A stretch of DNA of 64,000 nt, from assembly GCA_001543005.1 (NCBI GenBank), contig LFLB01000008.1, positions 62,001 through 126,000 of the forward strand, given 5' to 3'. Shown in pieces: positions 14,855 through 63,931 of this stretch (the first letter of the stretch is position 1; each line of letters begins with the position of its first letter). This DNA comes from Candidatus Spongiihabitans thiooxidans (lineage in GTDB: Bacteria; Pseudomonadota; Gammaproteobacteria; Arenicellales; Poriferihabitantaceae). The notes under the pieces were generated by a model. That model had not been told where the DNA came from and did not search any database. It worked only from the letters and a program-made list of their open reading frames with translations. Made by a program: the position numbers and the translations under genes.

Positions 14855-16885
14855 CTAACGGCGTTTTCGGCGGCGTGGTCTGCCGCCATTTTTATCGTCG
14901 TTGCTGGCTTGCGAAGGACTGGGGAGGTCAACCACTTTTTTTAGATTGACGAAGTTAGCGGTCTTGTGGGGAATAGCAAGGGCTTCAACAAAATAATCCT
15001 GAAACTTGGGCTCAATCGCGGTTTCAACCTTCTGAATACGTTTTACCACATCTTCTATTTCATACCGAGCAGCGGTGTCGAGGAGAGCAATCGTAGCGCC
15101 GGTGCCGGCCGCATTGCCGGCCGAAGTGACGTGTTCCAATTTACAGTCCGGTATCATGCCCAGCACCATCGCATACTTGACATCAATATGCGCGCCAAAG
15201 GCGCCGGCCAATCGAATCCTGTCAACGCTATCTATATTCAGCTTGTCCATCAACAATCGGGCGCCCGCATACAATGCGGCTTTGGCAAGTTGTATAGCAC
15301 GAACATCGCTTTGGGTAATCATCACTTTTACCTTGCCTTCATCGTAAAGGTTGTAACTCCAGGTTTTTTCATCTGCGACCACCCGGGTCGATCTAGCCGC
15401 GAGTGCGCCGTCAATAACGCCATCGGTTTTAATCAGTCCGGCGAGAAACATTTCGGCGATGACTTCGATGATGCCCGACCCGCATATCCCAGTAATACCG
15501 GTTTTTTCGGTCTCCTGCTTGAACCCTGGCTCATCCGACCATAGCTCGCTACCGATCACCCTGAATTTAGGCTCAAGTGATTCCTTGTCTATTCGCACGC
15601 GCTCGATAGCGCCCGGTGCCGCTCGCTGGCCACCGCTTATTTGCGCGCCCTCAAATGCCGGGCCGGTGGGGCTGGAGGCGGCGACCATCTTTTTGTTGTT
15701 ACCCAGAACGATCTCGGCATTGGTGCCAACATCAACCAATAATGTCAGTTCGTCTCTCTCATAAGGCGCTTCGGACAACGTCGCAGCCGCGGCATCAGCG
15801 CCCACATGCCCGGCGATACAGGGCAAAATATAAGCCCTCGCGCCAGGGTTCATGCCAAAATCATGGCCCAAATTCAAGTCGCTGGCTTTGATATTTAATG
15901 CCTGGTCCGTGGCCAATGCAAATGGCGCGCCGCCCAATTCCACTGGGCTAATCCCAAGCAAAAGATGATGCATTACCGGATTGCCAACCAGCGTCATATC
16001 CAACACATCGTTGATATCGATGTCCATTTCTTCGACCAGCTCTTTTATTAACCCGTGAAGCGCTTCCCGGATTGCGCGAGTCATGTCCGTTTCGCCGCCC
16101 GGATTCATCATCACGTAGGAAACCCGACTCATCAAGTCTTCGCCAAACCGAATTTGCGGATTCATTCTTCCAGCCGAATTTATAGCTTTACCGCTAATCA
16201 AATCACATAGATGAGCCGCAATCGTGGTCGAGCCGACATCGACTGCGACGCCATAGATTTTATTTTTTATTCCCGGCCAAATTGCGATGACCTGTTTTTC
16301 ATTGTGAATGGCGAGGGTCACTTTCCAGTCGCCTCCCCGCAATATCGATTGCAATGATCCGAGCAGGTGGAAATCAATCTCTATGTCGGTCAATCCCCAG
16401 TCAAATTCCAGGGCATCCAGCAGACGTTGCAAATCACCGCTGGGGTCGTGCATGTTGGGTTGCGGGACTTCAATGTAATGCAGCCGAACCGCGGGGTTCA
16501 ATGTGATGTTATGCACATCCAGCCGCTTGCGAACCAGTTGACGGTGCGCCTGACTCTCCGGCGGTATATCAATGACCACATCGCCGAGCAGTTTTGCCTG
16601 GCAGCCCAGGCGACGAGTGGTTGCTGTGCCCGCGGGAAAAAATTCCTGCTCGCTGGCACTCAGTGGCGACAGATGGCCCGGGTTGGAATGAATTTTAAAC
16701 TTGGCAAACTCGCCGACGCTGTGATCAATCTGACAACGATCACAAATCCCTCGTCCGCCACAAACCGTATCGAGATCGACGCCGAGCTGTTGAGCGGCCT
16801 CTAGCACTGACTTGCCCGCGGCAATTTCACCGCGCTTGCCGGACGGGGTGAACACCACCTGTACAGTATTGCCCTGATCGTTCAT
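14855..16885 (-). CDS. Ferredoxin/ASKHA-domain corrinoid reactivation protein (RamA-like, DUF4445)
   Basis: A 676-residue protein with an N-terminal plant-type 2Fe-2S domain (VCGGRGICDRCQID, Cys 42, 48 and 51, with a later Cys near residue 94) and a large ASKHA ATPase-like region (GVAVDVGSTTIAAHLCDL; LLVDVGTNAEIVLG; LAGAFGAHIDVKYAM). Proteins of this build reduce inactive Co(II) corrinoids back to Co(I) using ATP. The C-terminus ends in a polybasic GGRPRRRKRR. Its start overlaps the GFA stop by four bases (ATGA). It lies last in the run of corrinoid genes, consistent with reactivation of the corrinoid protein encoded upstream. Confidence 0.9.
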   Translation of the reverse strand: MNDQGNTVQVVFTPSGKRGEIAAGKSVLEAAQQLGVDLDTVCGGRGICDRCQIDHSVGEFAKFKIHSNPGHLSPLSASEQEFFPAGTATTRRLGCQAKLLGDVVIDIPPESQAHRQLVRKRLDVHNITLNPAVRLHYIEVPQPNMHDPSGDLQRLLDALEFDWGLTDIEIDFHLLGSLQSILRGGDWKVTLAIHNEKQVIAIWPGIKNKIYGVAVDVGSTTIAAHLCDLISGKAINSAGRMNPQIRFGEDLMSRVSYVMMNPGGETDMTRAIREALHGLIKELVEEMDIDINDVLDMTLVGNPVMHHLLLGISPVELGGAPFALATDQALNIKASDLNLGHDFGMNPGARAYILPCIAGHVGADAAAATLSEAPYERDELTLLVDVGTNAEIVLGNNKKMVAASSPTGPAFEGAQISGGQRAAPGAIERVRIDKESLEPKFRVIGSELWSDEPGFKQETEKTGITGICGSGIIEVIAEMFLAGLIKTDGVIDGALAARSTRVVADEKTWSYNLYDEGKVKVMITQSDVRAIQLAKAALYAGARLLMDKLNIDSVDRIRLAGAFGAHIDVKYAMVLGMIPDCKLEHVTSAGNAAGTGATIALLDTAARYEIEDVVKRIQKVETAIEPKFQDYFVEALAIPHKTANFVNLKKVVDLPSPSQASNDDKNGGRPRRRKRR

Positions 16886-17265
16886 TTCAAAACTGGAAGG
16901 TCGTGATAGTCACTCTTATCTTCAACAAAAATATTGCGGGTTGTCGCAAGGTAGGTCGGTTTGTCCAGTGTGCCCGCAGTAATGCTGATGGTTTGCGCCC
17001 CATTTCTCTGCCAAAACAAACTGCTGCCGCAGTGATTACAAAATCCACGTTTCGCCGCATCTGAAGATTCATACCACCTGAGGGTGGCATGGTTGACTAA
17101 TTCAAACTGACTGAGGTCCGCTTCGGTCGCTGCAAAATGATGGCCCGAGGTTTTTTGACACTGGATGCAAAAGCAATTGGTAACGTCTCGCAGTTCACCA
17201 ACCGTCTTATACCGAACACCTTCACATAAACAACCACCGGTTCTAACTCGATCGACTTCGGCCAT
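16882..17265 (-). CDS. GFA family (glutathione-dependent formaldehyde-activating enzyme-like) protein
   Basis: A 127-residue zinc protein with the GFA/CENP-V layout: GGCLCEGVRY, NCFCIQCQKTSG and FCNHCGSSLFW provide the zinc-binding cysteines. Family members are linked to glutathione adducts, though true formaldehyde activation has been questioned. It sits between the methyltetrahydrofolate methyltransferase and the ASKHA protein, with an ATGA overlap to the latter, suggesting a role in one-carbon handling within this pathway; that role is inferred from position. Confidence 0.88.
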   Translation of the reverse strand: MAEVDRVRTGGCLCEGVRYKTVGELRDVTNCFCIQCQKTSGHHFAATEADLSQFELVNHATLRWYESSDAAKRGFCNHCGSSLFWQRNGAQTISITAGTLDKPTYLATTRNIFVEDKSDYHDLPVLK

Positions 17266-17303
17266 TGTTCAGATCGCTGTTCGGGTGTTGCGTGCGAAAG
17301 GAT

Positions 17304-18206
17304 TTACGCCCGACGACGGCGTCTATTTGCACGCGCGCCACCGGCGCCTGCATTTTCATCAGTGGGTTGTCGATATTTTTTCAACCACTTGGCGCAGTTA
17401 TTATCATGGCCCATAACCACATCCGCGCTCATTATCCCTTGCATGACTTCCTCGTGCAACGGATTGGTTATCGCACAAGTCATGCCCGCGCCGATAGCCA
17501 TGCTCAAGAAATGCCCGTCCATCCCCTTTCGATTAGGAATACCAAAACTAAAATTCGATGCGCCACAGGTAGTGTTCACTTTCAATTCCTCGCGCAACCG
17601 CCTGACCAAATGCAAAACCTGCCGGCCTGCACTATTGACCGCCCCGACCGGCATCACCAATGGATCGACAATAATATCGCTGTAATGAATACCGTGGTCG
17701 GCGGCCCGCTCGATAATTTTCTTGGCAACATCAAACCGATCATCGGGGTTTTCTGAAATGCCCGCTTCGTCATTTGAGATAGCCACAACCGCACAATTGT
17801 ACTTTTTCACCAATGGCAATACCGCTTCCAAACGCTCGTCTTCCCCGGTTACCGAATTGAGCAATGGCTTTCCCTGATACACTTCCAGCCCGGCTTCCAG
17901 GGCCGCAACAATTGATGAATCAATGGACAGCGGCACATCAGTAATCGATTGCACCAATTGAATCGCTTGTGCAAGAATCCCCGGCTCGTCCGCCAATGGA
18001 ATTCCCGCATTGACATCGAGCATCTTTGCCCCGGCCGCTACTTGTGCAAGCGCGTCGCTCTCGACTCGACTGTAATCACCGTTTTTCATTTCCTCCGCTA
18101 AAATCTTGCGGCCAGTTGGATTTATTCTTTCGCCGATAATCACAAACGGTTGTTCATGCCCGATTTTTAATTCTTTTGTTGCTGAACTGATAACTGTATC
18201 TGTCAT
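17304..18206 (-). CDS. Methyltetrahydrofolate:corrinoid methyltransferase (pterin-binding)
   Basis: About 300 residues with the dihydropteroate-synthase-like TIM barrel of methyltetrahydrofolate methyltransferases: VIIGERINPTGRKI at the start, AAGAKMLDVNAGIP, PLSIDSS and NCAVVAISNDEAG. It should move a methyl group between the corrinoid protein and tetrahydrofolate. The chosen ATG at 18206 starts MTDTVISSATKELK, in register with the family; an earlier in-frame ATG at 18311 adds 35 unlikely residues. The C-terminus ends in Gly/Ala followed by a polyarginine tail (ANRRRRRA). Confidence 0.9.
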   Translation of the reverse strand: MTDTVISSATKELKIGHEQPFVIIGERINPTGRKILAEEMKNGDYSRVESDALAQVAAGAKMLDVNAGIPLADEPGILAQAIQLVQSITDVPLSIDSSIVAALEAGLEVYQGKPLLNSVTGEDERLEAVLPLVKKYNCAVVAISNDEAGISENPDDRFDVAKKIIERAADHGIHYSDIIVDPLVMPVGAVNSAGRQVLHLVRRLREELKVNTTCGASNFSFGIPNRKGMDGHFLSMAIGAGMTCAITNPLHEEVMQGIMSADVVMGHDNNCAKWLKKYRQPTDENAGAGGARANRRRRRA

Positions 18207-18335
18207 ACTGCTACTTCTATAAGTCAATGATGAAGGATTGTCGCCGAACACTCGACCCAATGTCACATTAAGATCGTCAAATATTGCCTGTTTTGCACCT
18301 ACGTATCTCAAACACCTGAATATATCAGGTGCGCC

Positions 18336-18662
18336 TCAGGCTTGAGATGCGGTTTCGGGTTCATTGCCTTGATTACGCCCGTGACTGCGAATGAGCGCCA
18401 TTAGCCTGTCTTTGTCATAGGCCGCTTCCAGTCTAGCGGCGGCGGCTTGCGCTTCAGTGCGTAAATCACCTCCGCAATTTACACTGACCCTTCTCCATTC
18501 TTCGAGATAAGCATCCGAGCCGATCAATCCAGCGCGCATCGCCGCTCGGTCAATGGCATCGGCAAAACGTTCGTTTAATTCAATTTTTTCAGCTTGACGA
18601 CGTTCTTTGGCCATCACCTGAACCGGGATGTCGCGCCAATAAACGGTTATCAGTTTAGCCAT
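18336..18662 (-). CDS. 'Virulence factor' family small protein
   Basis: A 108-residue protein starting MAKLITVYWRDIPVQVMAK, recognisable as the small family annotated 'virulence factor' that travels with methyltetrahydrofolate methyltransferase and DUF1638 genes, especially in marine alphaproteobacteria. No catalytic motif is evident; the middle is helical and charged. The name is historical and gives no evidence of virulence. Its conserved company suggests a role in the corrinoid methyl-transfer pathway. Confidence 0.75.
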   Translation of the reverse strand: MAKLITVYWRDIPVQVMAKERRQAEKIELNERFADAIDRAAMRAGLIGSDAYLEEWRRVSVNCGGDLRTEAQAAAARLEAAYDKDRLMALIRSHGRNQGNEPETASQA

Positions 18663-18712
18663 TGCAAATCCTCAAAATAAGTCCTCAAATTTGATGAGGC
18701 GTGAAAGACATT

Positions 18713-19339
18713 CTAATGCCGGACGCTGCCAATTTGCACCGACAAGGCAGATTCAAAGTGTTGGTCACGGGTCAAAACTCGCTGGTATTCCAGTTCCAGG
18801 TAATTGGCGGCGTTTCGGGCTTTTTTATCAATTTCCATGTCATTGAGCTGTGCCAGATAGACCAGCTTCTTGTAATTGCTGAAAAATTGATCCTTTAGCT
18901 GAGGGAATCGATCCAGCGCCAAGCCCTTGATAATCAGGCGATCGAAATGCGTGGCTAGGAAATCAGTCAGGTAGAAGGTGCCTAATTCGGCCTCGTGAAG
19001 CGCCTTGAATTTCTTTACGCCAGAAAACATCTCGTAGCAATGCGCTCCGGGCAATCGCTCAATACCGTACTGTTGCAAAACCGCATCCAGCAGTCCACCC
19101 GTGCCGCAGTCTGAATAAGCGACAAAAATACTTTGATATTTGTGCCGATTTTGTTCGATTTTGTTTCGCACTGCATCGGGAATTTTCTGAGGGTGGTTGT
19201 GCAATTCGGCAGGCAGGCATTGGATGTCCATATGCTGCCACTGGTTGAGCGCTTTTACGCGCACCAGATCGTGTGCCAATGCACCACAGGCGATCACTAA
19301 AACGGACTGGGCCAAAACCTGCTGGGGGTTAGGGGACAT
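18713..19339 (-). CDS. DUF1638 domain-containing protein
   Basis: About 208 residues from ATG at 19339 (MSPNPQQVLAQSVLVIACGAL). The pattern VIACGALAHDLVRVK near the start, then LPAELHNHPQKIPDAV and FVAYSDCGTGGLLDAVL, fits DUF1638. The family has no established function; conserved Cys (CGAL, DCGTGG) and His residues suggest metal or cofactor binding. The longer frame up to 19492 overlaps the corrinoid gene and is unlikely. It sits directly between the corrinoid protein and the 'virulence factor' gene, its usual context. Confidence 0.82.
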   Translation of the reverse strand: MSPNPQQVLAQSVLVIACGALAHDLVRVKALNQWQHMDIQCLPAELHNHPQKIPDAVRNKIEQNRHKYQSIFVAYSDCGTGGLLDAVLQQYGIERLPGAHCYEMFSGVKKFKALHEAELGTFYLTDFLATHFDRLIIKGLALDRFPQLKDQFFSNYKKLVYLAQLNDMEIDKKARNAANYLELEYQRVLTRDQHFESALSVQIGSVRH

Positions 19340-19400
19340 CGCTGGATGTGACTCCGGTGATTCTGACAGTTGAAAACGAGGCCGCTTCAATCGAATTAAA

Positions 19401-20096
19401 TCAGGCGGCGCGTTTTTCCGCCATCTTCGCCTGGGCGGTTTCCACCGCCACGGCCGCATCCCGACAATAAGCGTCGGCGCCGATGGCCGCACTGAATTCC
19501 TCGTTCAGCGGCGCGCCGCCAACCAGAACGATATAATCGTCGCGCATGCCTTTTTCCACCAGAGTGTCGATGACCACTTTCATATAAGGCATGGTTGTGG
19601 TCAATAACGCCGACATACCAATAATATCGGGCTTATGCTGTTCGATGGCTTCGAGATAATTTTCCACTGGATTATCAATGCCGAGATTGATGACTTCAAA
19701 ACCCGCGCCTTCCATCATCATCGCCACCAGGTTTTTACCGATGTCATGAATATCGCCTTTCACCGTGCCGATGATCATTTTGCCGATCGGTTCGGCGCCG
19801 GTTTCTGCCAACAAGGGGCGAAGAATTTCCATGCCGCCTTTCATTGCATTAGCCGACATCAAAACTTCCGGCACAAATAAAATGCCGTCACGAAAATCGA
19901 TGCCGACAATACGCATACCTTCCACCAACGCGTCGTCAAGGACTTTCGATGCGGTCCAGCCGCGTCCCAACAAGATATTGGTGCCTTCCACAATTTCGTC
20001 GCGCAACCCGTCATAGAGATCATCGTGCATTTGTTCGACCAGCTCGTCATCGGACAACGAGGATAAATCTAAATCATCATCGTATTCATCTACCAT
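19401..20096 (-). CDS. Corrinoid (B12-binding) protein, MttC-like
   Basis: A 231-residue protein with an N-terminal helical cap and a C-terminal Rossmann B12 domain. The cobalamin-binding motif DxHxxG is clear in VKGDIHDIGKNLV (Asp115, His117, Gly120), followed by GFEVINLGIDNPVENYLEAI and IGMSALLTTTMPYMK. It has an acidic N-terminus (MVDEYDDDLD). It is the methyl carrier between the MttB-like protein and the folate-dependent methyltransferase and is first in the minus-strand cluster. Confidence 0.93.
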   Translation of the reverse strand: MVDEYDDDLDLSSLSDDELVEQMHDDLYDGLRDEIVEGTNILLGRGWTASKVLDDALVEGMRIVGIDFRDGILFVPEVLMSANAMKGGMEILRPLLAETGAEPIGKMIIGTVKGDIHDIGKNLVAMMMEGAGFEVINLGIDNPVENYLEAIEQHKPDIIGMSALLTTTMPYMKVVIDTLVEKGMRDDYIVLVGGAPLNEEFSAAIGADAYCRDAAVAVETAQAKMAEKRAA

Positions 20097-23039: not shown

Positions 23040-23627
23040 TTATTCAATCTTGGGCTTTTCCAGTAGATAGGGCATCGCTGACTTCAAATAAACCCACATC
23101 GACCACAGGGTGAGTATGGCGGCAAAATAAAAAGCGATCTCACCGACATGAAATATAGGTATTCCCATTATTGGCTTGGCGTACAACAAAAGCCCGATGG
23201 AAACCATTTGAAATACGGTCTTGACTTTTCCCAATGCACCCACCGCCATCATACCCCGTTCCCCGAGTTCCGCCATCCATTCGCGCAAAGCGGAAATTAC
23301 AATTTCCCGTCCAATAATGATACATACCGCAACCGCAAACGGCATCGGGTGGAACACTCGGCCAAGCACCTCGGAATCCGAAACCAACAGCACCAGCGCG
23401 CTGGAGACGATCAGTTTATCCGCCACCGGATCCAGGAACGCGCCGAGCATCGAGGTTGCATTCAGCTTTCTTGCAAGAAATCCGTCTAACCAATCGGTTA
23501 CTGCCGCGAGCACAAATATACTGGTGATTATCAGCTCTCTTTTTTCCGATGACCAAAAGTAAGCAATCACCAATACCGGAATCAGTAAAATTCTCAACAA
23601 TGTCAGGCTGTTTGGGATATTTAGCAT
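23040..23627 (-). CDS. pgsA: CDP-diacylglycerol-glycerol-3-phosphate 3-phosphatidyltransferase
   Basis: Makes phosphatidylglycerol phosphate at the inner membrane. The CDP-alcohol phosphotransferase motif is complete: DWLDGFLARKLN followed by SMLGAFLDPVADKL, giving the DG-AR-G-D-D pattern. 195 residues with several hydrophobic helices, normal length, start MLNIPNSLTLLRI typical. It lies downstream of the uvrC fusion on the same strand, the usual uvrC-pgsA order. Confidence 0.95.
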   Translation of the reverse strand: MLNIPNSLTLLRILLIPVLVIAYFWSSEKRELIITSIFVLAAVTDWLDGFLARKLNATSMLGAFLDPVADKLIVSSALVLLVSDSEVLGRVFHPMPFAVAVCIIIGREIVISALREWMAELGERGMMAVGALGKVKTVFQMVSIGLLLYAKPIMGIPIFHVGEIAFYFAAILTLWSMWVYLKSAMPYLLEKPKIE

Positions 23628-23736
23628 TGTTGTTTTGCCACTGTCGTTACGCTCACCGCCAAATATTTTGGATGCGTGATTTTAAAGTAGCGAGTTTAAG
23701 AGATTTTCACCCTTTTGATGTTATTTTTTTGGATAT

Positions 23737-23828
23737 ACCCAAACCATAAGGGCATAAATACCCAAACCATAAGGGCATAAATACCCAAACCATAAGGGCA
23801 TAAATACCCAAACCATAGGACATAAAGG
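23737..23828. repeat. 23-bp tandem repeat, four copies
   Basis: The unit ACCCAAACCATAAGGGCATAA plus AT recurs with exact 23-base period at 23737, 23760, 23783 and 23806; the last copy is diverged. It lies between pgsA and uvrC. A related sequence occurs at about 31509-31545, where it forms the end of livH. No unique spacers, so it is not a CRISPR array. Confidence 0.85.
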
Positions 23829-23986: not shown

Positions 23987-26473
23987 CTAATCATGGAACC
24001 GGTTATAAATCCGCTGCGCCAGCACCGGACTAATCCCCGGGACTTTGGCTAAGTCCTCGGTGCCAGCGCGCGTTACTTCTCGCAATCCACCAAAATACCT
24101 TAACAGATTGCGGCGGCGTGTATCGCCCACGCCCTCGATTTGTTGCAACGGCGACTCGGTGCGCGCCTTGGCACGGCGTTGGCGATGTCCGGTAATGGCA
24201 AAGCGATGTGCTTCGTCTCGAACGCGCTGTATCAGGTGCAACGCCGACGATGTTTTGTCGGGTATTATAGCGCGAATGCTGCCGAACAGGTGAAGCTGTT
24301 CGTCTCCAGGGCGGCGTGTGCGGCCCTTGGAGACCGCCAATAACACCACCGAACCCAAAATCTGTAATTCCTCAAATACCCGCGCCGCCACGCCCAACTG
24401 ACCCTTGCCGCCGTCGACAATGACCAGGTCCGGCAGCTTGCCGTCGTCTTGCAACACCCGTTTGTAACGCCGTTTCAGGGTCTGCTGCATGGCGGCATAA
24501 TCATCCCCCGGTTCGATTCCTGAAATATTAAATTTTCGATAATCCGATTTAACGGCGCCCTGATGGTTGAATACCACGCACGACCCTACTGCGCGCTCGC
24601 CCATGGTGTGGCTGATGTCAAAACATTCAATCCGGGCCGGAACTTCGTCCAAAGACAATAAATCAGTCAACGCCACAAACTGTGCATCAATCTGGCTTCG
24701 CTGGTTGAGATGGCTGCGCAAGTGATCGACGGTGTTGACGCGCGCCGATTCTATCCAGCGGGCGCGATGGGCGCGGCAGCGGTGCTTGATTTCAACCCTG
24801 CTTTTATTCTCAATTGAAAATACCTGTTGCAAAGAACTTCTGCTTTCAATTTTTTCGCTGAGCAATATTTCCGCTGGCATGATTGACCCGAAATAATTCT
24901 GCGGCAAAAACGCTTCCAGCAGCTTGGCGGCGGCCAGATCCAGCGGATTTTTTTGGATGTGGAAACGGCTGCCGAGATTGCGCCCGTGGCGGATTGATAC
25001 CACCCCAAAACACACCCTGCCAGACTCAAGCGCCACCGTTACCACATCGGCGTTACCGCTGCCGGAGGAAACATATTGCTTGGCCGTGGCGCGTTGCAGT
25101 AGTGCGATACGGTCGCGGTAGTGCGCCGCGGTTTCATAATCCAGCCTGGTTGACGCGCTTTCCATTTTACCGGCCAGTTCATCAAGCAGGGAAAAATCCC
25201 GGCCGCCCAGCATGGCTTTCGCCTGACGCACATCTTCGAGATAGTCTTCGCGCCCAATGCGCCCGACACAAGGCGCGCTACATCGTTTGATTTGATACTG
25301 CAGGCACGGGCGCGAACGGTTGCGAAAAAAGGCGTCGTTACATTGCCGCAGGCGAAATATTTTATGCAGTAGGGCGAGCATTTCGCGCACCGCGGTGGCG
25401 TTGGGATAGGGCCCGTAATACTGGTGTGGGCGCGTGCGCCGGCCACGATAAAAAGAAAACCTTGGAAACAGGTCTCGTTCGGTCAGGCGAATATAGGGGA
25501 AACTTTTGTCATCGCGCAAGGAGATGTTGTAACGCGGTTTCTGCTCCTTGATCAGATTATTTTCCAGTAGTAACGCCTCGCTTTCGGTGCGGGTTTGCTG
25601 GGTTTCGGCGCGGTGAATTTTCGACACCATCAAGCGCGTCTTCGCGCTCAGTCCGGTATTTCTAAAATAACTTTGCAGGCGTTTTTTTAAGTTGCCTGCC
25701 TTGCCGACATACAAGGTTTTTTCATCCTGATCCGAGAAAATATAAACCCCTGGTTTTTCCGACACCATGTCCAGAAATACTTTGGAATCAAAATTATTGC
25801 CGGTTTCAGGCACGCGCAATTTTCCACGCGCAATTTTCGCTAACTCAGAATGGATACGTTGAAAAACGTTGTCAAACATCGGCTCGGTTAATCGACGGGT
25901 GTGCGTATTATAGCGGCTGCAATGATAACTATCGATCAGGATCAGGCCGTTGTCGAGTGCGTGACCGGCGTTGTGGGCAAATTGATATTGGCTTAATTTA
26001 AGGTTGAAGGCGCGTAAGATGGCGCGATGAGCCAATTGACCGAGGGCCAGGATTACGTGCAAATGCGGCTGCATCACTTCTGCTTGCAGAAAGTGATTGC
26101 AGTTTTTTTCCTCCTCTCCGAGCGGCTTATTTTGCGGCGGCAGGCATTTCACTGCGTTAGTAATTCGGCAATTATATAACTGTAATTCATCGTTCGCATG
26201 CGCCGACACAGGTTCTGAAGCGAACCCAAATTTATACAATGTTTGATACAGCAAAATACCGGCATGATCACCGGTGAATGGTCTGCCGGTGGCATTGGCG
26301 CCGTGCTTGCCGGGGGCCAGCCCGACGATTAACAGTTGCGCTTCTTCTACTCCGAAAGGCGGCACCGGTTTGCATGTATAATTTTCATGCCGCGCCTTAA
26401 CTTCCTGTAAAAACTGAACCAGCCGAGGGCATTGCCTACAGTTTTGGTCATACCATTGTTTTGGCCACTTCAC
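23987..26473 (-). CDS. uvrC: Uracil-DNA glycosylase (family 5, UDGb)-UvrC fusion protein
   Basis: One uninterrupted frame of 828 residues. Residues 1-215 are a UDGb-type glycosylase: Fe-S cysteines C12, C15, C110 and C125, motif VGLAPGKHGANATGRPFTGD (50-69), and SYHCSRYNTHTRRLT (182-196), where the family has HPSxxN. Residues about 226-828 are a complete UvrC: GIY-YIG nuclease (PGVYIF, LYVGKAGNLKKRL), the RPCLQYQIKRCSAPCVG cysteine motif, a UVR segment (LDYETAAHYRDRI), the RNase H-like domain (ECFDISHTMGERAVGS; LVIVDGGKGQLG) and C-terminal helix-hairpin-helix. It would join uracil removal with nucleotide excision incision. No ATG lies at the canonical UvrC start, but an in-frame GTG at 25813 (residue 221) could give a separate ~608-residue UvrC. 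Followed by pgsA as usual. Confidence 0.9.
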   Translation of the reverse strand: MKWPKQWYDQNCRQCPRLVQFLQEVKARHENYTCKPVPPFGVEEAQLLIVGLAPGKHGANATGRPFTGDHAGILLYQTLYKFGFASEPVSAHANDELQLYNCRITNAVKCLPPQNKPLGEEEKNCNHFLQAEVMQPHLHVILALGQLAHRAILRAFNLKLSQYQFAHNAGHALDNGLILIDSYHCSRYNTHTRRLTEPMFDNVFQRIHSELAKIARGKLRVPETGNNFDSKVFLDMVSEKPGVYIFSDQDEKTLYVGKAGNLKKRLQSYFRNTGLSAKTRLMVSKIHRAETQQTRTESEALLLENNLIKEQKPRYNISLRDDKSFPYIRLTERDLFPRFSFYRGRRTRPHQYYGPYPNATAVREMLALLHKIFRLRQCNDAFFRNRSRPCLQYQIKRCSAPCVGRIGREDYLEDVRQAKAMLGGRDFSLLDELAGKMESASTRLDYETAAHYRDRIALLQRATAKQYVSSGSGNADVVTVALESGRVCFGVVSIRHGRNLGSRFHIQKNPLDLAAAKLLEAFLPQNYFGSIMPAEILLSEKIESRSSLQQVFSIENKSRVEIKHRCRAHRARWIESARVNTVDHLRSHLNQRSQIDAQFVALTDLLSLDEVPARIECFDISHTMGERAVGSCVVFNHQGAVKSDYRKFNISGIEPGDDYAAMQQTLKRRYKRVLQDDGKLPDLVIVDGGKGQLGVAARVFEELQILGSVVLLAVSKGRTRRPGDEQLHLFGSIRAIIPDKTSSALHLIQRVRDEAHRFAITGHRQRRAKARTESPLQQIEGVGDTRRRNLLRYFGGLREVTRAGTEDLAKVPGISPVLAQRIYNRFHD

Positions 26474-26600
26474 CGTATTCGCCTCATGTTAATTGTTCCG
26501 GCCTAATTGTTCCAAGCTGATTTTCCAGGCTGATTGTTTGCGGGTAGTATACAATTCATGCTCTTATCAATCCCATAATCGCCCACAATTATTTTGCAAA

Positions 26601-36842: not shown

Positions 36843-37808
36843 ATGACGTATTTAGACTGTTTGGAAAAGCACGCGAAACTTCAGCAAAGAGCGGCAAATG
36901 CAGAATTGAAGTTAAACTCTGTTCGCCAAGCGGTTGCAAAACACTTGGCAAAAAAGCCAATGCATTATAGTGGTTTTTGTTGTGGCTCTTTGGGTAGAGG
37001 AGATTTTGGTAAAACCTCCGATTTAGACATTTTTGTTTTCTCGAAAAAAGACGAGGATGAGCGAACAAGGCTAAGTGACAGAGAACTGCTTTCCGAATTA
37101 ATTTCCGTAAACAAAGAGCTAAGCTTTCCTGAATTCAGCAATGATGGGATGTTTCTAAAAATTCTTTCTTTTCCTGAAATGAAAAAATCGATAGGGTATC
37201 CTAAAGATGATGAGAAGAATCTCTTTACCAGCAGAATGTTAATGCTGTTAGAAAGCAAACCGCTGTTCAACGAGAATCTCTATAATTCGCAAATGAATGA
37301 AATTGTTAATTTGTATTTTCGTGATGACGTTGATCGGCATTCTTTCAAACCACTTTTTCTGTTGAACGATATTCTGAGATTTTGGAGAACCCTTTGTCTA
37401 AACTATGAAATTGTCAGAAATGACACGACAAAGCCTTTTCGTAAAAAAAATATTAATCTCAAATTTAGCCGAATGTTAACCGTATTTGCGACTATCCTGC
37501 CCATCATATCTAAACACCAGTGTAGTAAAGAAGATGTGTTGAGTCTTTGTAAACAGCCTCCATTGAATCAACTTGCTATTGGGCTGGACAATCTGAGCGA
37601 TGATAAGCTACTTGATGATTTTGGCGAGTTTTTAGATCGTTACGAGTTTTTCCTGAGTCAAAAAGAAAATATGTCAGACGAAATGGACATAGAAACCAGA
37701 GAAAAAGATAAACTAAATGCAACGGCTGTAAAATTTACAGACTTTTTATACAAGTGCTTAAGCCATTGCAAAATCCAGCAAGAATACAAGAAATATTTGG
37801 TTTTATGA
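36843..37808 (+). CDS. Polymerase-beta-type nucleotidyltransferase
   Basis: 321 residues. The catalytic core CGSLGRGDFGKTSDLDIFVF (residues 47-66) has the GS motif and DxD (Asp60, Asp62) of the Pol-beta nucleotidyltransferase superfamily. The GRG and the helical C-terminal half (about 150-310), with FKPLFLLNDILRFWRTLCLNY, resemble the GlnD/DUF294 branch rather than tRNA CCA enzymes. It is notably AT-rich with many Lys/Phe/Asn codons unlike the flanking transporter genes, a sign of transfer. Its stop overlaps the next start as ATGA, so the two are coupled. Substrate unknown: could modify a protein, tRNA or make an oligonucleotide. Confidence 0.8.
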   Translation: MTYLDCLEKHAKLQQRAANAELKLNSVRQAVAKHLAKKPMHYSGFCCGSLGRGDFGKTSDLDIFVFSKKDEDERTRLSDRELLSELISVNKELSFPEFSNDGMFLKILSFPEMKKSIGYPKDDEKNLFTSRMLMLLESKPLFNENLYNSQMNEIVNLYFRDDVDRHSFKPLFLLNDILRFWRTLCLNYEIVRNDTTKPFRKKNINLKFSRMLTVFATILPIISKHQCSKEDVLSLCKQPPLNQLAIGLDNLSDDKLLDDFGEFLDRYEFFLSQKENMSDEMDIETREKDKLNATAVKFTDFLYKCLSHCKIQQEYKKYLVL

Positions 37809-38422
37809 GCGAAAATAAATTCCTGTTTATCAACATTCTTGACAAAGAATTAGTCACCTTATTTCAAGGGTTGAAATCGATTTTCAATGATCAGGAATCA
37901 ACTTCGCCGATCCATATTACGGTTAAAGGACCTCAAAAAAGCAACTTCAAAGCAACCTCATTTAAGAAATTTTCTGACAGCGACCATCCGCTAGTCATCT
38001 CGCAAAGTAGTTATTTTTCTTACTCAAAAAAATACTTTGCTCATTTTAAAGTACAAATACCTGAAATGGAAAAATACCAACTGTGGTACAAGCCCACATT
38101 TCCATCCGAGAAAAATCCGCACATCACCATTTGCGAAACAAGCGACGAGAATTTTTCCAAAGACATTGTCAGGTTTTTAAATAAGGAAGTAGATGATTTG
38201 TTATGCAGGGACTACGAATTCCTTCAATATATACCGTCACAACATGACATTGTTCTCGAAATGGGTTTAGAAAAAACGCGAAATATCGATGATGCAGGCA
38301 TACCTGATTTAATTAATATTGGAAAAGTAAGGAAAGGATTGTTTGCAAGAGCTCGCAAGATCAAGGCAAATCATATTGATCTCGCAAATCGTGGGAGGCA
38401 AACAGCCCTTCATGCGAACTAA
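37805..38422 (+). CDS. 2H phosphoesterase-like protein
   Basis: 205 residues from the ATG at 37805. Two H-x-T motifs are seen, PIHITVKGP (His37, Thr39) and NPHITICET (His106, Thr108), about 69 residues apart, which is the diagnostic pattern of 2H phosphoesterases (LigT, cyclic nucleotide phosphodiesterase, 2',5'-specific enzymes). These hydrolyse cyclic or 2'-5' phosphodiester bonds. The C-terminal 50 residues are extra and basic. Coupled by a 4-base overlap to the nucleotidyltransferase; the pair looks like a make/break or add/remove enzyme couple, which is inference. Confidence 0.7.
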   Translation: MSENKFLFINILDKELVTLFQGLKSIFNDQESTSPIHITVKGPQKSNFKATSFKKFSDSDHPLVISQSSYFSYSKKYFAHFKVQIPEMEKYQLWYKPTFPSEKNPHITICETSDENFSKDIVRFLNKEVDDLLCRDYEFLQYIPSQHDIVLEMGLEKTRNIDDAGIPDLINIGKVRKGLFARARKIKANHIDLANRGRQTALHAN

Positions 38423-43432: not shown

Positions 43433-44377
43433 ATGCGAAAACAAGTGAATATCGCGACTGCTTTCGGCTTGAATGAACAGACGGTTTTGTATCATGGAAG
43501 CTGTGTCGATATGTTGAAAACAATACCGAATAAATCAATTCAGCTAATTGTTACATCGCCCCCCTATAATATAGGCAAGGAATACGAAAAAAAAACAAAA
43601 TTAAGCAATTACATTGAGAAACAATCACAGATAATCAAGGAATGTGAACGTGTTCTCACGGAATCTGGGAGTATCTGCTGGCAAGTTGGTAATTTCGTAG
43701 AGGACGGCTCAATTATTCCCTTGGATATTGCATTGTATCCTGTATTCGCTGATTTGAATCTCGTTATGAGAAATAGAATTATTTGGCACTTTGAGCATGG
43801 GTTGCACTGCTCAAGACGGCTTTCAGGACGTTATGAAACGATTATTTGGTTTACTCGGAAAACGAAGGAGTATGTTTTTCATTTAGACCCTGTAAGAGTC
43901 CCCCAGAAGTATCCTGCAAAAAAATATTTCAAAGGACCTAAGGCGGGGCAATATTCCTGCAACCCGCTTGGGAAAAACCCTGGAGATTTATGGATTGTGC
44001 CTAATGTAAAGAGCAACCATGTAGAAAAAACCGAACATCCCTGCCAGTATCCAGTGGAGCTAATCGAACGTCTTGTCTTATCGATGACCAATGAAGGAGA
44101 CTGGGTTTTAGATCCATTTGCGGGAACTGGAACATCAATCATCGCCGCTATTTTGCATAACAGGCGAGGCGCCGGAGCGGAAACTGAAAAAAAATATATT
44201 AAATTAGCAAAAAATCGTATTGTAAAAACTATTAATGGAACACTAAAAACCAGGCCGATGAACAAACCGGTATATGACCCAAAAGAGAGCGGGAATAAAC
44301 TGATCGCAGTGCCTTGGCAAAATGCTGAAGATAATAAAGCTGTTCAATTAACATTATTTGAAAAAACGAGCGTATAG
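43433..44377 (+). CDS. Site-specific DNA methyltransferase (type II, beta-class order)
   Basis: 314 residues. The catalytic motif TSPPYN (41-46) precedes the SAM-binding motif DPFAGTGTS (around 227-235), the order of beta-class amino-methyltransferases. The SPPY form is common for N4-cytosine but also occurs in N6-adenine enzymes, so the modified base is uncertain. It protects host DNA from the endonuclease encoded next, with which it overlaps by one base (TAGTG). AT-rich, unlike the flanking metabolic genes. Confidence 0.92.
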   Translation: MRKQVNIATAFGLNEQTVLYHGSCVDMLKTIPNKSIQLIVTSPPYNIGKEYEKKTKLSNYIEKQSQIIKECERVLTESGSICWQVGNFVEDGSIIPLDIALYPVFADLNLVMRNRIIWHFEHGLHCSRRLSGRYETIIWFTRKTKEYVFHLDPVRVPQKYPAKKYFKGPKAGQYSCNPLGKNPGDLWIVPNVKSNHVEKTEHPCQYPVELIERLVLSMTNEGDWVLDPFAGTGTSIIAAILHNRRGAGAETEKKYIKLAKNRIVKTINGTLKTRPMNKPVYDPKESGNKLIAVPWQNAEDNKAVQLTLFEKTSV

Positions 44378-44988
44378 TGAAAATAGTTGAAACATACTCA
44401 CACTTGAACGGTCTTGAATACTTGTTGGTGCATAAACCAAAATTGTGGAAGGAAGTTAAATCTGTTATTCAGCAAGTCGATGGTCAGGCATGCAAGACAA
44501 AAGTATCAAAAGAAAAAACCATGAAGGGGCGTTTATTGTACAGCCCCATAGAAATGAATAAACTGTTTAAGATTTTGTTAGGATCAAAAAAATGGAAAGA
44601 AAGCCGTGTGAGTTACTGGGTAACAAAAGATGACAAGCTGATCCGAAAAACACTTGCGATGCCACCTGAAACACAAAAAGAGGAAATTGAACGAACTGGT
44701 TTTTCCCCGATATTCAGTTATAACCAAACTGATTTTGTAAAAGACAGAGTGGCTATTGAAGTACAATTTGGAAAATATTCATTTGTTGCTTATGACTTGT
44801 TTGTAAAGCATTTAGCGTTTTATGTCGGCGATCAGATTGATGTTGGCATCGAAATACTTCCGATGAAAGAATTGCAATCACAAATGAGTTCAGGCGTGGC
44901 CTATTACGAAGGAGAATTGTATAATGTCATTCGTCAGGGAAGAGGCGTGCCTGCGGTGCCTCTTGTAATGCTTGGAATTGAAGAATGA
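44377..44988 (+). CDS. BglII/BstYI-family type II restriction endonuclease
   Basis: 203 residues, GTG start overlapping the methyltransferase stop. The whole C-terminal half matches the BglII/BstYI family as recalled: DFVKDRVAIEVQFGKYSF, VAYDLFVKHLAFYVGDQID and VAYYEGELYNVIRQGRG. The catalytic set is Asp119, Glu128 and Gln130, matching the unusual D-x8-E-x-Q site of BglII (Asp84, Glu93, Gln95). Family members cut sequences with a GATC core (AGATCT, RGATCY); the target here is inferred, not shown. Confidence 0.87.
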   Translation: MKIVETYSHLNGLEYLLVHKPKLWKEVKSVIQQVDGQACKTKVSKEKTMKGRLLYSPIEMNKLFKILLGSKKWKESRVSYWVTKDDKLIRKTLAMPPETQKEEIERTGFSPIFSYNQTDFVKDRVAIEVQFGKYSFVAYDLFVKHLAFYVGDQIDVGIEILPMKELQSQMSSGVAYYEGELYNVIRQGRGVPAVPLVMLGIEE

Positions 44989-45302
44989 CACTGAATTACT
45001 TCTGCTTGCTTTAAAAGTAAGGAAAACACAAAGCAGGATTTACCCTCTTCATAATATTCTTGGTATAGGGCATAAATATATCCTTTATTTAAGATTTGGA
45101 GTTAAGTTTGGCCTCGTGCAGGTTCCTTAAAAATAAACATGTATAGGTGCAAAATAGAAGAGCAATACTTTATAGAGGTATAGTGTTGCGACGGAAAAGA
45201 GTTATAGCCATTCAAAGGGCGGAACCAGATAACATCATTATTAGTGGTATTGTTGTCGTGCTTTCAGTACACGCCTCAAAATAAATCAATTTTTTGCTCG
45301 CT
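44989..45302. other. Intergenic region between restriction and toxin genes
   Basis: 314 AT-rich bases between convergent genes. No recognisable protein. It has no obvious strong hairpin terminator. Confidence 0.35.
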
Positions 45303-45686
45303 TCAGACGTATTTGTTTACAAAACGAGGGGTAAACCTGGAGTGCGCTACGCCGAAAATAATCCTGTCGAATAATTCAATACTGACAATCCCTTTATCAA
45401 TGAACAACCTGCTCTCGACACCCTTCTCCAATTCCCTTGCTGTATAGCATCGACACTTTCTGTAATCAACGTAACTCACATGTTTAACAAAATCATGGTC
45501 GCCAGCGTTTACAGTGCAGGAATCGTCGTATTTCCGATCCTGATACACGGTGCAAATTGGCACGATAATAATTTCTCGTTGCGGCCCGACAGGATTATTT
45601 AGAATTACGAAAAGGTGTTTGTTACTTAAATTTCCTTGTGGATTTGATGGCACCAGGAGTGAGCCACGCTCTACAACACTGAACAA
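45303..45686 (-). CDS. Putative PemK/MazF-like toxin
   Basis: 127 residues. The order ERGSLLVPSNPQGN, KHLFVILNNPVGPQREIII and VPICTVYQDRKYDDSC fits a small SH3-like PemK/MazF fold (G-SLLV near the start, a 'VVILNNP' strand). The match is by eye and distant. It follows the Panacea antitoxin gene by 25 bases on the same strand, the arrangement of Panacea toxin-antitoxin pairs, which are known to carry many unrelated toxins. If a PemK-like toxin, it would cut mRNA; unproved. Confidence 0.6.
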   Translation of the reverse strand: MFSVVERGSLLVPSNPQGNLSNKHLFVILNNPVGPQREIIIVPICTVYQDRKYDDSCTVNAGDHDFVKHVSYVDYRKCRCYTARELEKGVESRLFIDKGIVSIELFDRIIFGVAHSRFTPRFVNKYV

Positions 45687-45711
45687 AATGCCTGCCTGGT
45701 ATCTAGTGATG

Positions 45712-46272
45712 CTATAAAGATGCGAACAGCCTGTCTAATTCTTTTTCGTTTTGTATGTCTTCAGCGAGATCGCGGGCTATGGTTTCGTGCTTACCAAGTG
45801 CTAGAAAGACCTCGACATCAGAAATAGGAATCGATGAATTGTTTGGATGTTTCCATTCCTTGCAAAGATTATGAGTAAGTTCAACTAACTGCCACTGATC
45901 ATAATGCCCAAACTGGTTCCATACTGAATTCATAACCTCAATGTCGGCATCGCTCAATTGGTCTAATTGTTGTTCCTCAACAGTTTTTTTCAACTTGATA
46001 TTGTACTGGTCACGGTCTCCTATCCAAGCCGTCCATTGTGCCGCGCCTTCAGCGTCTGAACTGGTGCCATTGATTAAATCATAGGTGCGCGATAAAACGG
46101 GCCCATTATCCATGGACACAAAATTGTCATAGGTAATTGGCGCATCGTACAGGCGCATGGATTCTCTATCAGACAAATAAAGAAGCTTCACCAGTTTCAA
46201 GATGTTAATAGTGCCACCCTGTTTAGATGCGAAAAAGGCGGCCGCTTGCGCTACTTTGGTATAAGTAAACAT
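45712..46272 (-). CDS. Panacea (DUF4065/SocA-like) antitoxin
   Basis: 186 residues starting MFTYTKVAQAAAFFASKQGG, then INILKLVKLLYLSDRESM and NFVSMDNGPVLSRTYDLING, the well conserved core of the Panacea antitoxin domain. The C-terminal region is less conserved. A purine-rich AGAAGG lies upstream of the ATG. It is the first gene of a two-gene minus-strand unit, with the putative toxin second. Confidence 0.85.
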   Translation of the reverse strand: MFTYTKVAQAAAFFASKQGGTINILKLVKLLYLSDRESMRLYDAPITYDNFVSMDNGPVLSRTYDLINGTSSDAEGAAQWTAWIGDRDQYNIKLKKTVEEQQLDQLSDADIEVMNSVWNQFGHYDQWQLVELTHNLCKEWKHPNNSSIPISDVEVFLALGKHETIARDLAEDIQNEKELDRLFASL

Positions 46273-60305: not shown

Positions 60306-61946
60306 ATGAACAAAATTGATATTGCCGACCTGAAACAATTAAAGGATCGTGAACCCTTCGCTGCGCGAGTATCCAATGTTGACCTTGTGGTGATTCGTTA
60401 TGATGATGCGGTCTCGGTTTTATACGGCAGGTGTGCGCATCGTGGCGCCTTAATGGCCGATGGATGGATTAGCGGGGACAATATCATTTGCGGTGTGCAT
60501 GGTTGGGACTACCGCGTCGACAGCGGAATCAGCGAATATAACAATTCGGAATATCTGGACAAATTCGAGAGTTGGATTGAAGACCACAAGGTCTGGATTG
60601 ATAGAGACGAAATACTCGCCTGGGAAACCAATCATCCTCAACCCTATGACCGCAACGCCTATCAAGGCTCATTTCAGGACTCGGTGGGGACTGCGGATGA
60701 GCCCCATGTAAAGTTGATTCGCAAACTGGCAGGCGAAGGGTTGTCAAAAACCGGGCATCACGGCCCGGTCAGTGCGATGGGGGTGTCGCGCAACGATCTG
60801 CCAAAATGGGATGATCTACAATTCATTGTCGGGCAGCTGGCCGCCCTGCCTTTGCTTGATGATGCCGAGGTCAACAGCGAATTGGTCATCGGCCCGAATG
60901 CCGCTAAACCATTGAAACTGAAAATGCCGTTGTTGGTGTCGGACATGAGTTTCGGAGCGTTATCCGAAGAGGCAAAAATCGCCCTGGCCAAAGGCGCCGA
61001 GCTGGCGGGCACCGGGATTTGTTCCGGTGAGGGAGGCATGTTGCCTGAAGAGCAGCAAGCCAATCGGCGGTATTTTTATGAACTGGCTTCAGCCCGTTTT
61101 GGTTTCAGTTGGGACAAAGTCAAAAAATGCCAGGCTTTTCATTTCAAAGGCGGGCAAGGCGCAAAAACCGGTACCGGCGGGCATCTTCCAGGCATTAAAG
61201 TACAGGGCAAGATTGCGCAAGTGCGCGGGCTTGAGCCCGGGCAGGATGCGATTTCGCCGGCGCGCTTTCCAGAATGGGAGCGGATTGAACAGATACGCGA
61301 TTTCGCGGTGGAAGTGCGTGAACAAACCGGTGGCATTCCCATCGGCTACAAATTGTCAGCCCAGCATATCGAAAAAGATATTGATGCGGCTCTGGAAGTT
61401 GGCGTGGATTACATCATCCTCGATGGACGAGGCGGCGGCACCGGCGCCGCTCCCCTGATATTTCGGGATAACATCTCGGTGCCTACCATCCCCGCGGTTG
61501 CCAGAGCCCGACGCCATCTGGATAATTCGGGATGCCAGAATGTGACCCTGATCGCAACCGGCGGCTTACGCACACCGGCGGATTTTGCCAAGGCCATGGC
61601 GTTGGGTGCTAATGGCGTGGCCTTGGCAAACTCCGCGTTGCAAGCAATCGGCTGTTTGGGAATGCGTGCCTGTCATACCAATAACTGCCCGGTCGGCATC
61701 GCCACCCAGAGAAAGGATCTGCGGGCAAGATTGATTGTTGATGAGGCGGCCGAGCGTCTCAACCGATTCCTGAACGCGTCTGTGGAACTAATGTCTATCC
61801 TGGCCCGGGCCTGCGGACACCACAACCTGAGCGATTTTAATATCGATGACCTGACCACATTCGATCGCGATATGGCTTGCCTCACTGGCGTTAAATATGG
61901 CGGTGTCGGGCAACTTAATACAACCACCCTTTGGAAAGACCAATGA
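60306..61946 (+). CDS. Rieske domain-glutamate synthase-like (FMN, 3Fe-4S) fusion protein
   Basis: About 546 residues from ATG at 60306 (GGAGAGC site; an upstream start at 60285 adds seven residues). Residues 1-110 hold a Rieske 2Fe-2S domain: CAHRG (Cys43, His45) and CGVHGWDY (Cys62, His65). From about residue 185 comes the FMN-binding domain of glutamate synthase type (LVSDMSFGALSEEAKIALAK; YIILDGRGGGTGAAPL), with the 3Fe-4S motif CLGMRACHTNNC near 450-461. No glutaminase domain. The electron path Rieske to FMN is plausible; the amino acceptor or substrate is unknown. Coupled to the next gene by ATGA. Confidence 0.85.
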   Translation: MNKIDIADLKQLKDREPFAARVSNVDLVVIRYDDAVSVLYGRCAHRGALMADGWISGDNIICGVHGWDYRVDSGISEYNNSEYLDKFESWIEDHKVWIDRDEILAWETNHPQPYDRNAYQGSFQDSVGTADEPHVKLIRKLAGEGLSKTGHHGPVSAMGVSRNDLPKWDDLQFIVGQLAALPLLDDAEVNSELVIGPNAAKPLKLKMPLLVSDMSFGALSEEAKIALAKGAELAGTGICSGEGGMLPEEQQANRRYFYELASARFGFSWDKVKKCQAFHFKGGQGAKTGTGGHLPGIKVQGKIAQVRGLEPGQDAISPARFPEWERIEQIRDFAVEVREQTGGIPIGYKLSAQHIEKDIDAALEVGVDYIILDGRGGGTGAAPLIFRDNISVPTIPAVARARRHLDNSGCQNVTLIATGGLRTPADFAKAMALGANGVALANSALQAIGCLGMRACHTNNCPVGIATQRKDLRARLIVDEAAERLNRFLNASVELMSILARACGHHNLSDFNIDDLTTFDRDMACLTGVKYGGVGQLNTTTLWKDQ

Positions 61947-63931
61947 CAAAAGCTGATCAAGAATACAGCTGGCACAAAATTGCCGCTCCAGACGAATTAC
62001 CCGAAGGCCGGGTAAAAACCGTTACTGCCGGGACCAAAAGCATGGCCTTGACCCATATCAACGGACAGTACACGGCCATGGACAATCACTGCCCCCACCA
62101 GGGTGGACCCCTTGGAGAGGGTTCTATCGAACGCGCTGCCGATGGCCAGTGCTGGTTGCGATGCCCTTGGCATGGATGGGATTTTGATCCATTGACCGGG
62201 AAACCGCCAGGCGGCCACGAAGATTCGGGGCAGAAACTTTACCCGTTGGAGGTTAGAGAAGACGGCATCTATCTTGGGTTAGAAACAGAGCCGATCAGAG
62301 AACAAACAATTTCCGATGTCATGGTTGAAACTATGATCAATTGGGGCATCAAATCGGTATTTGGCATGGTCGGACATTCCAACCTCGGACTGGCCAATGC
62401 CCTGCGCTTACAGGAAGTCAAGGGTAATTTAACTTACTACGGTATTCGTCACGAGGGTGCCGCCGCTTTCGCCTGTTCGGGATACGCCAAGGCTTGCGGG
62501 CTACCCGCGGCCTGTTTAACCATCGCCGGGCCGGGCGCCACTAACTTGTTGACCGGGATGTGGGATTGTCATGTCGATCGGGCGCCGATATTGGCCCTGA
62601 CCGGGCAGGTGGATATTCAGGTATTGGGGCCTGGGGCATTTCAGGATATCGACCTTGCCTCCGCATTCGATGCGGTCACGGGTTTCAGCCAAACCGTATT
62701 GCATACCAGCAAGCATGGCGAACTGATGAGCCTGGCCTGTAAGAACGCCATCATCAACCGCAGTCCTGCACATCTCATTTTCCCCGACGATGTGCAAACC
62801 CTGCCGGTTACTGCAAAGTCAAAAGTGGGTCACCCCGATGGCAGAATGGGCGATCAAAAAATCACCCCGGCAGAAGATTCGGTGAAACAGGCTCTGGCCA
62901 TGATTCATGCTCACAAGCGACCGATAATTATCGTTGGTTACGGTGCCAAGCACAGTATGGCGGAAGTCATTGCGCTGGCCGAAAAGCTCAATGCGCCGGT
63001 TTTGACCACATTCAAAGGCAAAGGGCAAATATCCGACTCCCACCCTTTGGCGGCGGGTGTGCTGGGTCGTTCTGGGACGCCGATCGCCAGTTGGTTTATG
63101 AATGAATGCGATTTAATACTGGTGTTTGGCGCATCATTTTCCAACCACACGGGAATCACCGAAAAACGGCCGATTATTCAAATCGATTTCGAACAAATGG
63201 CACTGGGGAAATTCCATCCAGTGACCCTTCCGGTATGGGGAGAAGTCGCGACCACGGCAAATATTTTAAGCAAGCAGATAGATGAAAGCCTTCAGACTGT
63301 GGATCAACGGCCCGAACTGACCGAGCGTTGGGATATATGGCGCGACGAAAAATTCAGCAGACGAGGTGATGACACCGGCAAAGGCATCAATTCGGCATCG
63401 ATTTTTGATTCGCTGAGCCGCCTGGTTGCAAAAGATGCCATCATCGCTGTGGACGTCGGTAACAACACCTATTCTTTCGGACGTTATTTTGAATGTGCGC
63501 AACAATCGGTATTGATGTCCGGTTATTTGGGTTCCATCGGATTTTCATTTCCCGCCGCTATGGGCGCCTGGGCCGCCACTCAGGATATACAGGAATTAAA
63601 CGGCAGGCCGGTAATTTCGATCAGCGGCGATGGTGGATTTGGCCAATATCTGGCGGACTTCACCACCGCGGTGAAATATGACATGAATATCACTCACATT
63701 TTGCTGAACAACCATCAACTCGGCAAAATTTCCAAAGAGCAACGCGCTGCGCAATGGGATGTATGGCAGACCTCGCTGCACAATCCTAATTTTGCAGAAT
63801 ATGCGAAATTATGTGGCGCATTTGGCGAGCGGGTTGAAAAATCGGAAAATCTTGACCGGGTGATCGGGGCTGCATTGGATCATGCGGGACCAGCACTTGT
63901 GGAAGTGATGTCTGATCCAGACCTTATTTGA
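61943..63931 (+). CDS. Rieske domain-thiamine diphosphate enzyme fusion protein
   Basis: About 662 residues from ATG at 61943, overlapping the previous stop by four bases. Residues 10-115 are a Rieske domain with CPHQGG (Cys50, His52) and CPWHGWDF (Cys74, His77). From about 120 on it is an acetolactate synthase-like ThDP enzyme: the activating Glu171 in RHEGAAAFACSGYAKA, LTIAGPGATNLLTGMW, and the ThDP/Mg motif SISGDGGFGQYL with NNHQLG. Such enzymes cleave or join 2-oxo acids. A Rieske domain on a ThDP enzyme suggests redox-linked decarboxylation; substrate not identified. Confidence 0.87.
   Translation: MTKADQEYSWHKIAAPDELPEGRVKTVTAGTKSMALTHINGQYTAMDNHCPHQGGPLGEGSIERAADGQCWLRCPWHGWDFDPLTGKPPGGHEDSGQKLYPLEVREDGIYLGLETEPIREQTISDVMVETMINWGIKSVFGMVGHSNLGLANALRLQEVKGNLTYYGIRHEGAAAFACSGYAKACGLPAACLTIAGPGATNLLTGMWDCHVDRAPILALTGQVDIQVLGPGAFQDIDLASAFDAVTGFSQTVLHTSKHGELMSLACKNAIINRSPAHLIFPDDVQTLPVTAKSKVGHPDGRMGDQKITPAEDSVKQALAMIHAHKRPIIIVGYGAKHSMAEVIALAEKLNAPVLTTFKGKGQISDSHPLAAGVLGRSGTPIASWFMNECDLILVFGASFSNHTGITEKRPIIQIDFEQMALGKFHPVTLPVWGEVATTANILSKQIDESLQTVDQRPELTERWDIWRDEKFSRRGDDTGKGINSASIFDSLSRLVAKDAIIAVDVGNNTYSFGRYFECAQQSVLMSGYLGSIGFSFPAAMGAWAATQDIQELNGRPVISISGDGGFGQYLADFTTAVKYDMNITHILLNNHQLGKISKEQRAAQWDVWQTSLHNPNFAEYAKLCGAFGERVEKSENLDRVIGAALDHAGPALVEVMSDPDLI

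What the first reader, a model, noticed from the sequence alone, without database searches (positions are those of the whole stretch)
23987..26473. Family-5 uracil-DNA glycosylase fused in frame to UvrC
One 828-codon frame carries a whole UDGb-like glycosylase with Fe-S cysteines and a whole UvrC. UvrC is normally about 610 residues and free-standing. The fusion would place base removal and dual incision in one polypeptide, suggesting uracil or deaminated bases can be passed to nucleotide excision. The HPSxxN-type motif is HCSRYN here.
Basis: partly seen in the sequence, partly recalled or inferred. Interest (0 to 1): 0.8.

Follow-up and report, generated by a model that had tools for sequence, protein, structure and literature searches.

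The report
Repair genes fused by short duplication
In one gammaproteobacterial genome a 14-letter DNA duplication has joined two neighbouring DNA-repair genes, a uracil-removing enzyme and the UvrC nuclease, into one gene; relatives keep the same two genes side by side but separate, so this looks like a recent one-off joining that hints at, but does not prove, teamwork between the two repair pathways.

Summary
In detail: one 828-codon frame on the minus strand (26473..23987) carries a complete family-5 uracil-DNA glycosylase (UDGb) followed by a complete UvrC. All Fe-S and catalytic positions checked are kept, and HCSRYN is the invariant form of that motif in the relatives sampled. The new element is at the joint: window 25811-25838 is a perfect 14-bp tandem duplication. 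With one copy removed in silico, the frame becomes a 217-codon udg whose TGA overlaps the GTG start of a 608-codon uvrC by 8 bases, the ordinary layout in relatives. UDGb sits directly upstream of uvrC in 27 of 29 UDGb-bearing order relatives and 47 of 50 from the class, but in none of 40 genomes outside the class. None of 328 other UDGb genomes shows the fusion. It is best read as a recent, species- or strain-level fusion of a conserved two-gene operon, not an established new repair enzyme. The linker is predicted disordered, the native uvrC start survives in frame, and this is the only UvrC found in the genome. Hand-off of uracil-derived sites to excision repair is possible but untested. Reads were not available to exclude an assembly error or minority allele.

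The parts
23987..26473 (-). udgB-uvrC fusion ORF, 828 aa, GTG start
25859..26443 (-). family-5 uracil-DNA glycosylase (UDGb) domain, residues 11-205, with Fe-S cysteines C12, C15, C110, C125 and motifs GLAPG and HCSRYN
25811..25838 (-). perfect 14-bp tandem duplication (GAAAATTGCGCGTG)x2, codons 212-221; shifts the frame by 14 (2 mod 3) and joins the two genes
   Evidence: no perfect duplication with unit of 12 or more in any of 20 dinucleotide-model simulations of 64 kb
25811..25813 (-). in-frame GTG (codon 221), probable original uvrC start; upstream anti-SD pairing -3.3 kcal/mol, close to the mean of separate uvrC genes
25806..25808 (-). relic udg stop codon TGA, now out of frame (+2)
23987..25813 (-). 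UvrC part, 608 aa from the internal GTG: GIY-YIG, UVR, RNase H, HhH2; catalytic and Fe-S residues invariant
26482..26485 (-). GAGG Shine-Dalgarno-like site 8 nt before the GTG start of the fused frame (-6.0 kcal/mol)
23735..23817 (-). 23-bp perfect tandem repeat, 3.6 copies, between uvrC and the next gene downstream (context)
23040..23627 (-). downstream gene that reads as pgsA by eye (not scanned), then tRNA-Gly, tRNA-Cys, tRNA-Leu: the usual gammaproteobacterial uvrC neighbourhood (from memory)

Best explanation
A conserved, overlapping gammaproteobacterial gene pair, udgB then uvrC, was fused in this lineage by a recent 14-bp tandem duplication that put the end of udgB in frame with uvrC. 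Ribosomes starting at the GTG at 26473 now read through into uvrC and make one 828-residue protein with the glycosylase tethered by a short disordered linker to the N-terminal side of the GIY-YIG domain. Each half most likely does its ordinary job: UDGb excises uracil, and by family knowledge hypoxanthine and xanthine, leaving an AP site; UvrC with UvrB makes the two NER incisions. Shown: the frame, the duplication, the complete halves, the conserved pair, the uniqueness in the sample. Inferred: that the duplication is real and fixed, that the fused protein is the main product, and that both activities survive.
For: Perfect 14-bp tandem duplication exactly at the joint; collapsing it yields udg of 217 aa ending HSELAKIARA* and uvrC of 608 aa overlapping as GTGCCTGA. 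Relatives show the same order with overlapping or nearly abutting genes, including an ATGA overlap (L005) and a GTG-started uvrC (L009). UDGb adjacent to uvrC in 27 of 29 order relatives and 47 of 50 class members, 0 of 40 outside the class. No fusion among 328 other UDGb-positive genomes nor among 21 named loci holding both genes. The genome repeatedly carries short perfect tandem duplications: inside ORFs 8 of 10 have a unit divisible by 3 (p 0.003), outside ORFs 7 of 18, a coding-selection signature that assembly noise would not give. Single UvrC in the genome and a full UvrB. Catalytic and Fe-S positions intact. Linker 217-225 pLDDT below 50.
Against: One genome only, no same-genus genome held, no reads. 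A duplication whose unit is not a multiple of 3 could still be an assembly error or a minority allele. The internal uvrC GTG start survives, so free UvrC may also be made. No expression or activity data.
Confidence: 0.62

Rival explanations
1. Dual product: the fused frame is translated, but uvrC is also (or mainly) started at the internal GTG 25813, so the cell holds free UvrC plus a UDGb-UvrC fusion.
For: The in-frame GTG 8 codons before the conserved FD of UvrC lies where relatives start uvrC; its anti-SD pairing (-3.3 kcal/mol) is close to the mean of 115 other uvrC candidate starts (-3.4); the 14 bases before it are unchanged by the duplication.
Against: Stop-start coupling with the udg stop is lost, since the ribosome no longer terminates there; the SD is weak compared with that of the first gene (-6.0).
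Confidence: 0.35
2. Artefact or minority allele: the 14-bp second copy is an assembly error, or a variant not fixed in the population, and the normal organism has separate overlapping udgB and uvrC.
For: Collapsing the repeat restores the ordinary gene pair precisely; both copies are identical, so the event is very recent; the fusion is in only 1 of 329 genomes.
Against: Short tandem duplications are a recurrent feature of this genome and obey the reading frame inside genes; the large neighbouring ORFs tested match domain models with no obvious split genes.
Confidence: 0.18
3. Functional hand-off: tethering makes UDGb-generated AP sites (or UDGb-bound sites) preferred substrates for UvrABC incision, a bacterial BER-to-NER coupling for deaminated bases.
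For: Strong conservation of the udgB-uvrC pair in Gammaproteobacteria; AP sites are stated to be repaired by NER as a minor route (PMC9234237); both partners keep all catalytic residues.
Against: The fusion is unique and recent; many relatives in the same family lack UDGb but keep uvrC; NER recruits UvrC only after UvrA/UvrB recognition (general knowledge); the model gives no fixed domain arrangement (pTM 0.41).
Confidence: 0.12

Closest known systems
Thermus thermophilus UDGb (family 5 uracil-DNA glycosylase, PDB 2d3y/2ddg)
   Same: Full-length homology over residues 11-205, four Fe-S cysteine positions, GLAPG motif, HxSxxN motif, catalytic Asn equivalent (N120 in Tth, N115 here)
   Different: Free-standing enzyme of about 219 aa; here fused to UvrC
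UvrC (TIGR00194; e.g. PDB 3c65, 1yd6, 2nrt)
   Same: Complete domain set and catalytic residues
   Different: Normally about 610 aa and free; here preceded by UDGb
udgB-uvrC gene pair of Gammaproteobacteria (found here, e.g. L005, L009, L034, L055)
   Same: Same genes, same order, same strand, often overlapping
   Different: Separate stop and start codons in every relative examined
DEDD exonuclease-UvrC-like fusions (NCBIfam PRK07883 group; Cho-polIII epsilon fusion, PMC1839093)
   Same: A DNA-repair domain placed N-terminal to a UvrC-type GIY-YIG module; PRK07883 models match residues 231-502
   Different: An exonuclease, not a glycosylase, and only part of UvrC; an established family rather than a single case

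Membership tests
UDG family 5 (UDGb) | UDG superfamily fold with family-5 closest relatives | tested here: met
   PF03167 E 4e-25; best solved relative Tth UDGb E 9e-50 versus about 1e-9 for family 4
UDG family 5 (UDGb) | Four cysteines for a 4Fe-4S cluster | tested here: met
   C12, C15, C110, C125 invariant in 19 sequences
UDG family 5 (UDGb) | Motif A GLAP(A/G), no acidic water activator; motif B HxSxxN | tested here: met
   GLAPG at 51 and HCSRYN at 184; Tth has GLAPG and HVSRQN; PMC10359453 gives GLAPA and HPSPLN
UDG family 5 (UDGb) | Activity on dU, Hx and X in dsDNA | not testable with these tools
   needs purified protein
UvrC | GIY-YIG, UVR, RNase H, HhH2 domains over about 600 aa | tested here: met
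UvrC | Catalytic residues of both nuclease sites | tested here: met
   Y244, Y255, R265, E304 and D619, D687, H756 invariant in 32 sequences
UvrC | Four cysteines of the proposed Fe-S site | tested here: met
   C378, C390, C398, C402 invariant
UvrC | Dual incision with UvrA/UvrB | not testable with these tools
   a uvrB is present; uvrA not searched
Conserved UDGb-UvrC fusion family | Same fused architecture in other genomes | tested here: not met
   0 of 328 other UDGb genomes in the order, class and phylum samples; 0 of 21 named loci

The most novel reading that the evidence does not exclude
A natural single-chain BER/NER enzyme in which family-5 UDG activity delivers deaminated-base or AP sites directly to UvrC, exposing a functional partnership that the separate udgB-uvrC operon maintains throughout Gammaproteobacteria.
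Probability: 0.12. Interest if true: 0.78.

Novelty: new variant of a known kind. Interest (0 to 1): 0.42.

Why it matters
Base excision and nucleotide excision repair are usually treated as separate. A natural fusion of their enzymes, arising inside a gene pair kept together across Gammaproteobacteria, makes a link between UDGb and UvrC testable. It also catches a gene fusion close to its birth: the exact mutation, a 14-bp tandem duplication in overlapping genes, can still be read.

Tried and rejected
Fusion as a conserved architecture: rejected after searching 109 order, 369 class and 397 phylum genomes. Apparent long open frames in G187, G163, G446, G321 and G312 proved to be separate ORFs when the DNA was read. 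G576 has UDGb at the end of an 885-codon frame but no UvrC in it. HCSRYN as an odd motif: rejected, invariant in the family. Family 4 or UdgX identity: rejected by motif A (GLAPG, not GE(A/G)PG or GEQPG) and by the PDB search. A DNA alignment of the joint was unusable because some loci were in the opposite orientation; one search was used instead. A first mixed protein alignment placed UDG rows wrongly (checked) and was replaced by read-through rows. No paper on a UDGb-UvrC fusion or operon was found in the open library; subscription papers were not searchable.

Full report
What is there. The minus-strand frame 26473..23987 is open for 828 codons from a GTG preceded by a GAGG Shine-Dalgarno-like site. 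Pfam finds a UDG domain at 38-206 and then every UvrC domain to the end; NCBIfam uvrC scores 554 bits against a cut-off of 285. The first half is a family-5 UDG by closest solved relative (T. thermophilus UDGb, E 9e-50; family 4 only about 1e-9), by motif A GLAPG and by four cysteines. All of these, and HCSRYN, are invariant in 19 sequences. The UvrC half keeps the GIY-YIG residues, the RNase H Asp and His residues and the four cysteines of the proposed Fe-S site. The genome has one UvrC, a full-length UvrB and two further UDG-superfamily genes.

Context. In relatives udgB and uvrC are neighbours, in the same order and strand, with stop and start overlapping or within tens of bases. Counting, 27 of 29 other order-level genomes with UDGb have it directly upstream of uvrC (one apart, one cut by a contig end). 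Counting, 47 of 50 class-level genomes do (two apart, one unclear). Outside the class the two genes are never adjacent, 0 of 40. So the pair is a gammaproteobacterial operon-like unit. I found no description of it in the open literature. Several family members lack udgB but keep uvrC, so the partnership is not obligatory.

The joint. At 25811-25838 lies a perfect 14-bp tandem duplication, (GAAAATTGCGCGTG)x2 read on the gene strand. Fourteen is not a multiple of three. With one copy removed in silico, the first frame ends at codon 217 (...FQRIHSELAKIARA*) and its TGA overlaps the GTG start of a 608-codon uvrC as GTGCCTGA. That is the arrangement seen in relatives, for example the ATGA overlap in L005 and the GTG start in L009. 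The fusion therefore has a single-step explanation. No perfect duplication with a unit of 12 or more arose in 20 simulated 64-kb sequences, although the real window holds several, so short tandem duplications are a real feature here. In the window plus 252 kb of the rest of the genome, 8 of 10 inside ORFs have a unit divisible by three against 7 of 18 outside. That pattern is expected of real, selected mutations rather than assembly noise. The two copies are identical, so the event is recent: as a rough neutral inference, under about 0.1 substitutions per site since.

Uniqueness. Among 328 other genomes with UDGb (60 in the order, 145 in the class, 123 more in the phylum sample) none has UDGb in a frame with UvrC. 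Frames that looked long in one table were checked at DNA level and are separate genes; the one real long frame, in G576, carries no UvrC. In 10 of 21 named loci holding both genes the two already share a frame, parted only by stop codons, so fusion would often need only one or two substitutions and yet is not seen. By inference, fusion is usually not favoured.

How it most likely works. The main product is probably one 828-residue protein: glycosylase, a short disordered linker (217-225 pLDDT below 50, pTM 0.41), then UvrC. Family-5 enzymes remove uracil, hypoxanthine and xanthine and leave AP sites (PMC8438529). AP sites are mainly handled by BER, with NER as a minor route (PMC9234237). Simple tethering without a new activity is the conservative reading. 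Hand-off to UvrC is possible but rests only on the conserved gene pair. The original uvrC GTG remains in frame with a typical, weak ribosome site (-3.3 kcal/mol; mean of other uvrC starts -3.4), so some free UvrC may be made.

Limits. One assembly of 42 contigs, no reads, no second genome of the genus. An assembly error or a minority allele is not excluded. No activity or expression data exist here. uvrA was not searched, and the pgsA name rests on reading the sequence by eye.

Noticed in passing
window 61931-63931 (+): A Rieske [2Fe-2S] domain (residues 13-92) is fused in frame to a complete thiamine-diphosphate enzyme (residues 126-659), 666 aa in all; another domain combination worth a look.
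   Followed up: no
window 23735-23817: A 23-bp perfect tandem repeat in 3.6 copies between uvrC and the next gene downstream; the genome samples show more short tandem duplications (about 90 per Mb) than other gammaproteobacterial loci (about 19 to 40 per Mb).
   Followed up: partly
window 14855-20096 (-): Cluster of RACo-type activase, GFA-like, pterin-binding methyltransferase, DUF1638 and B12-binding proteins, which looks like a corrinoid-dependent demethylation system.
   Followed up: no
window 36843-38422 and 43433-46272: Two low-G+C islands (third-position G+C about 0.35-0.45 against about 0.6 around them) that look like recently acquired genes.
   Followed up: no
L117:3581-6001 (-), genome G576: UDGb at the C-terminal end of an 885-codon open frame whose first 600 residues match no Pfam family.
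   Followed up: partly
Gammaproteobacteria at large: udgB lies immediately upstream of uvrC in nearly all UDGb-bearing Gammaproteobacteria sampled and in none outside the class; no published description was found.
   Followed up: yes
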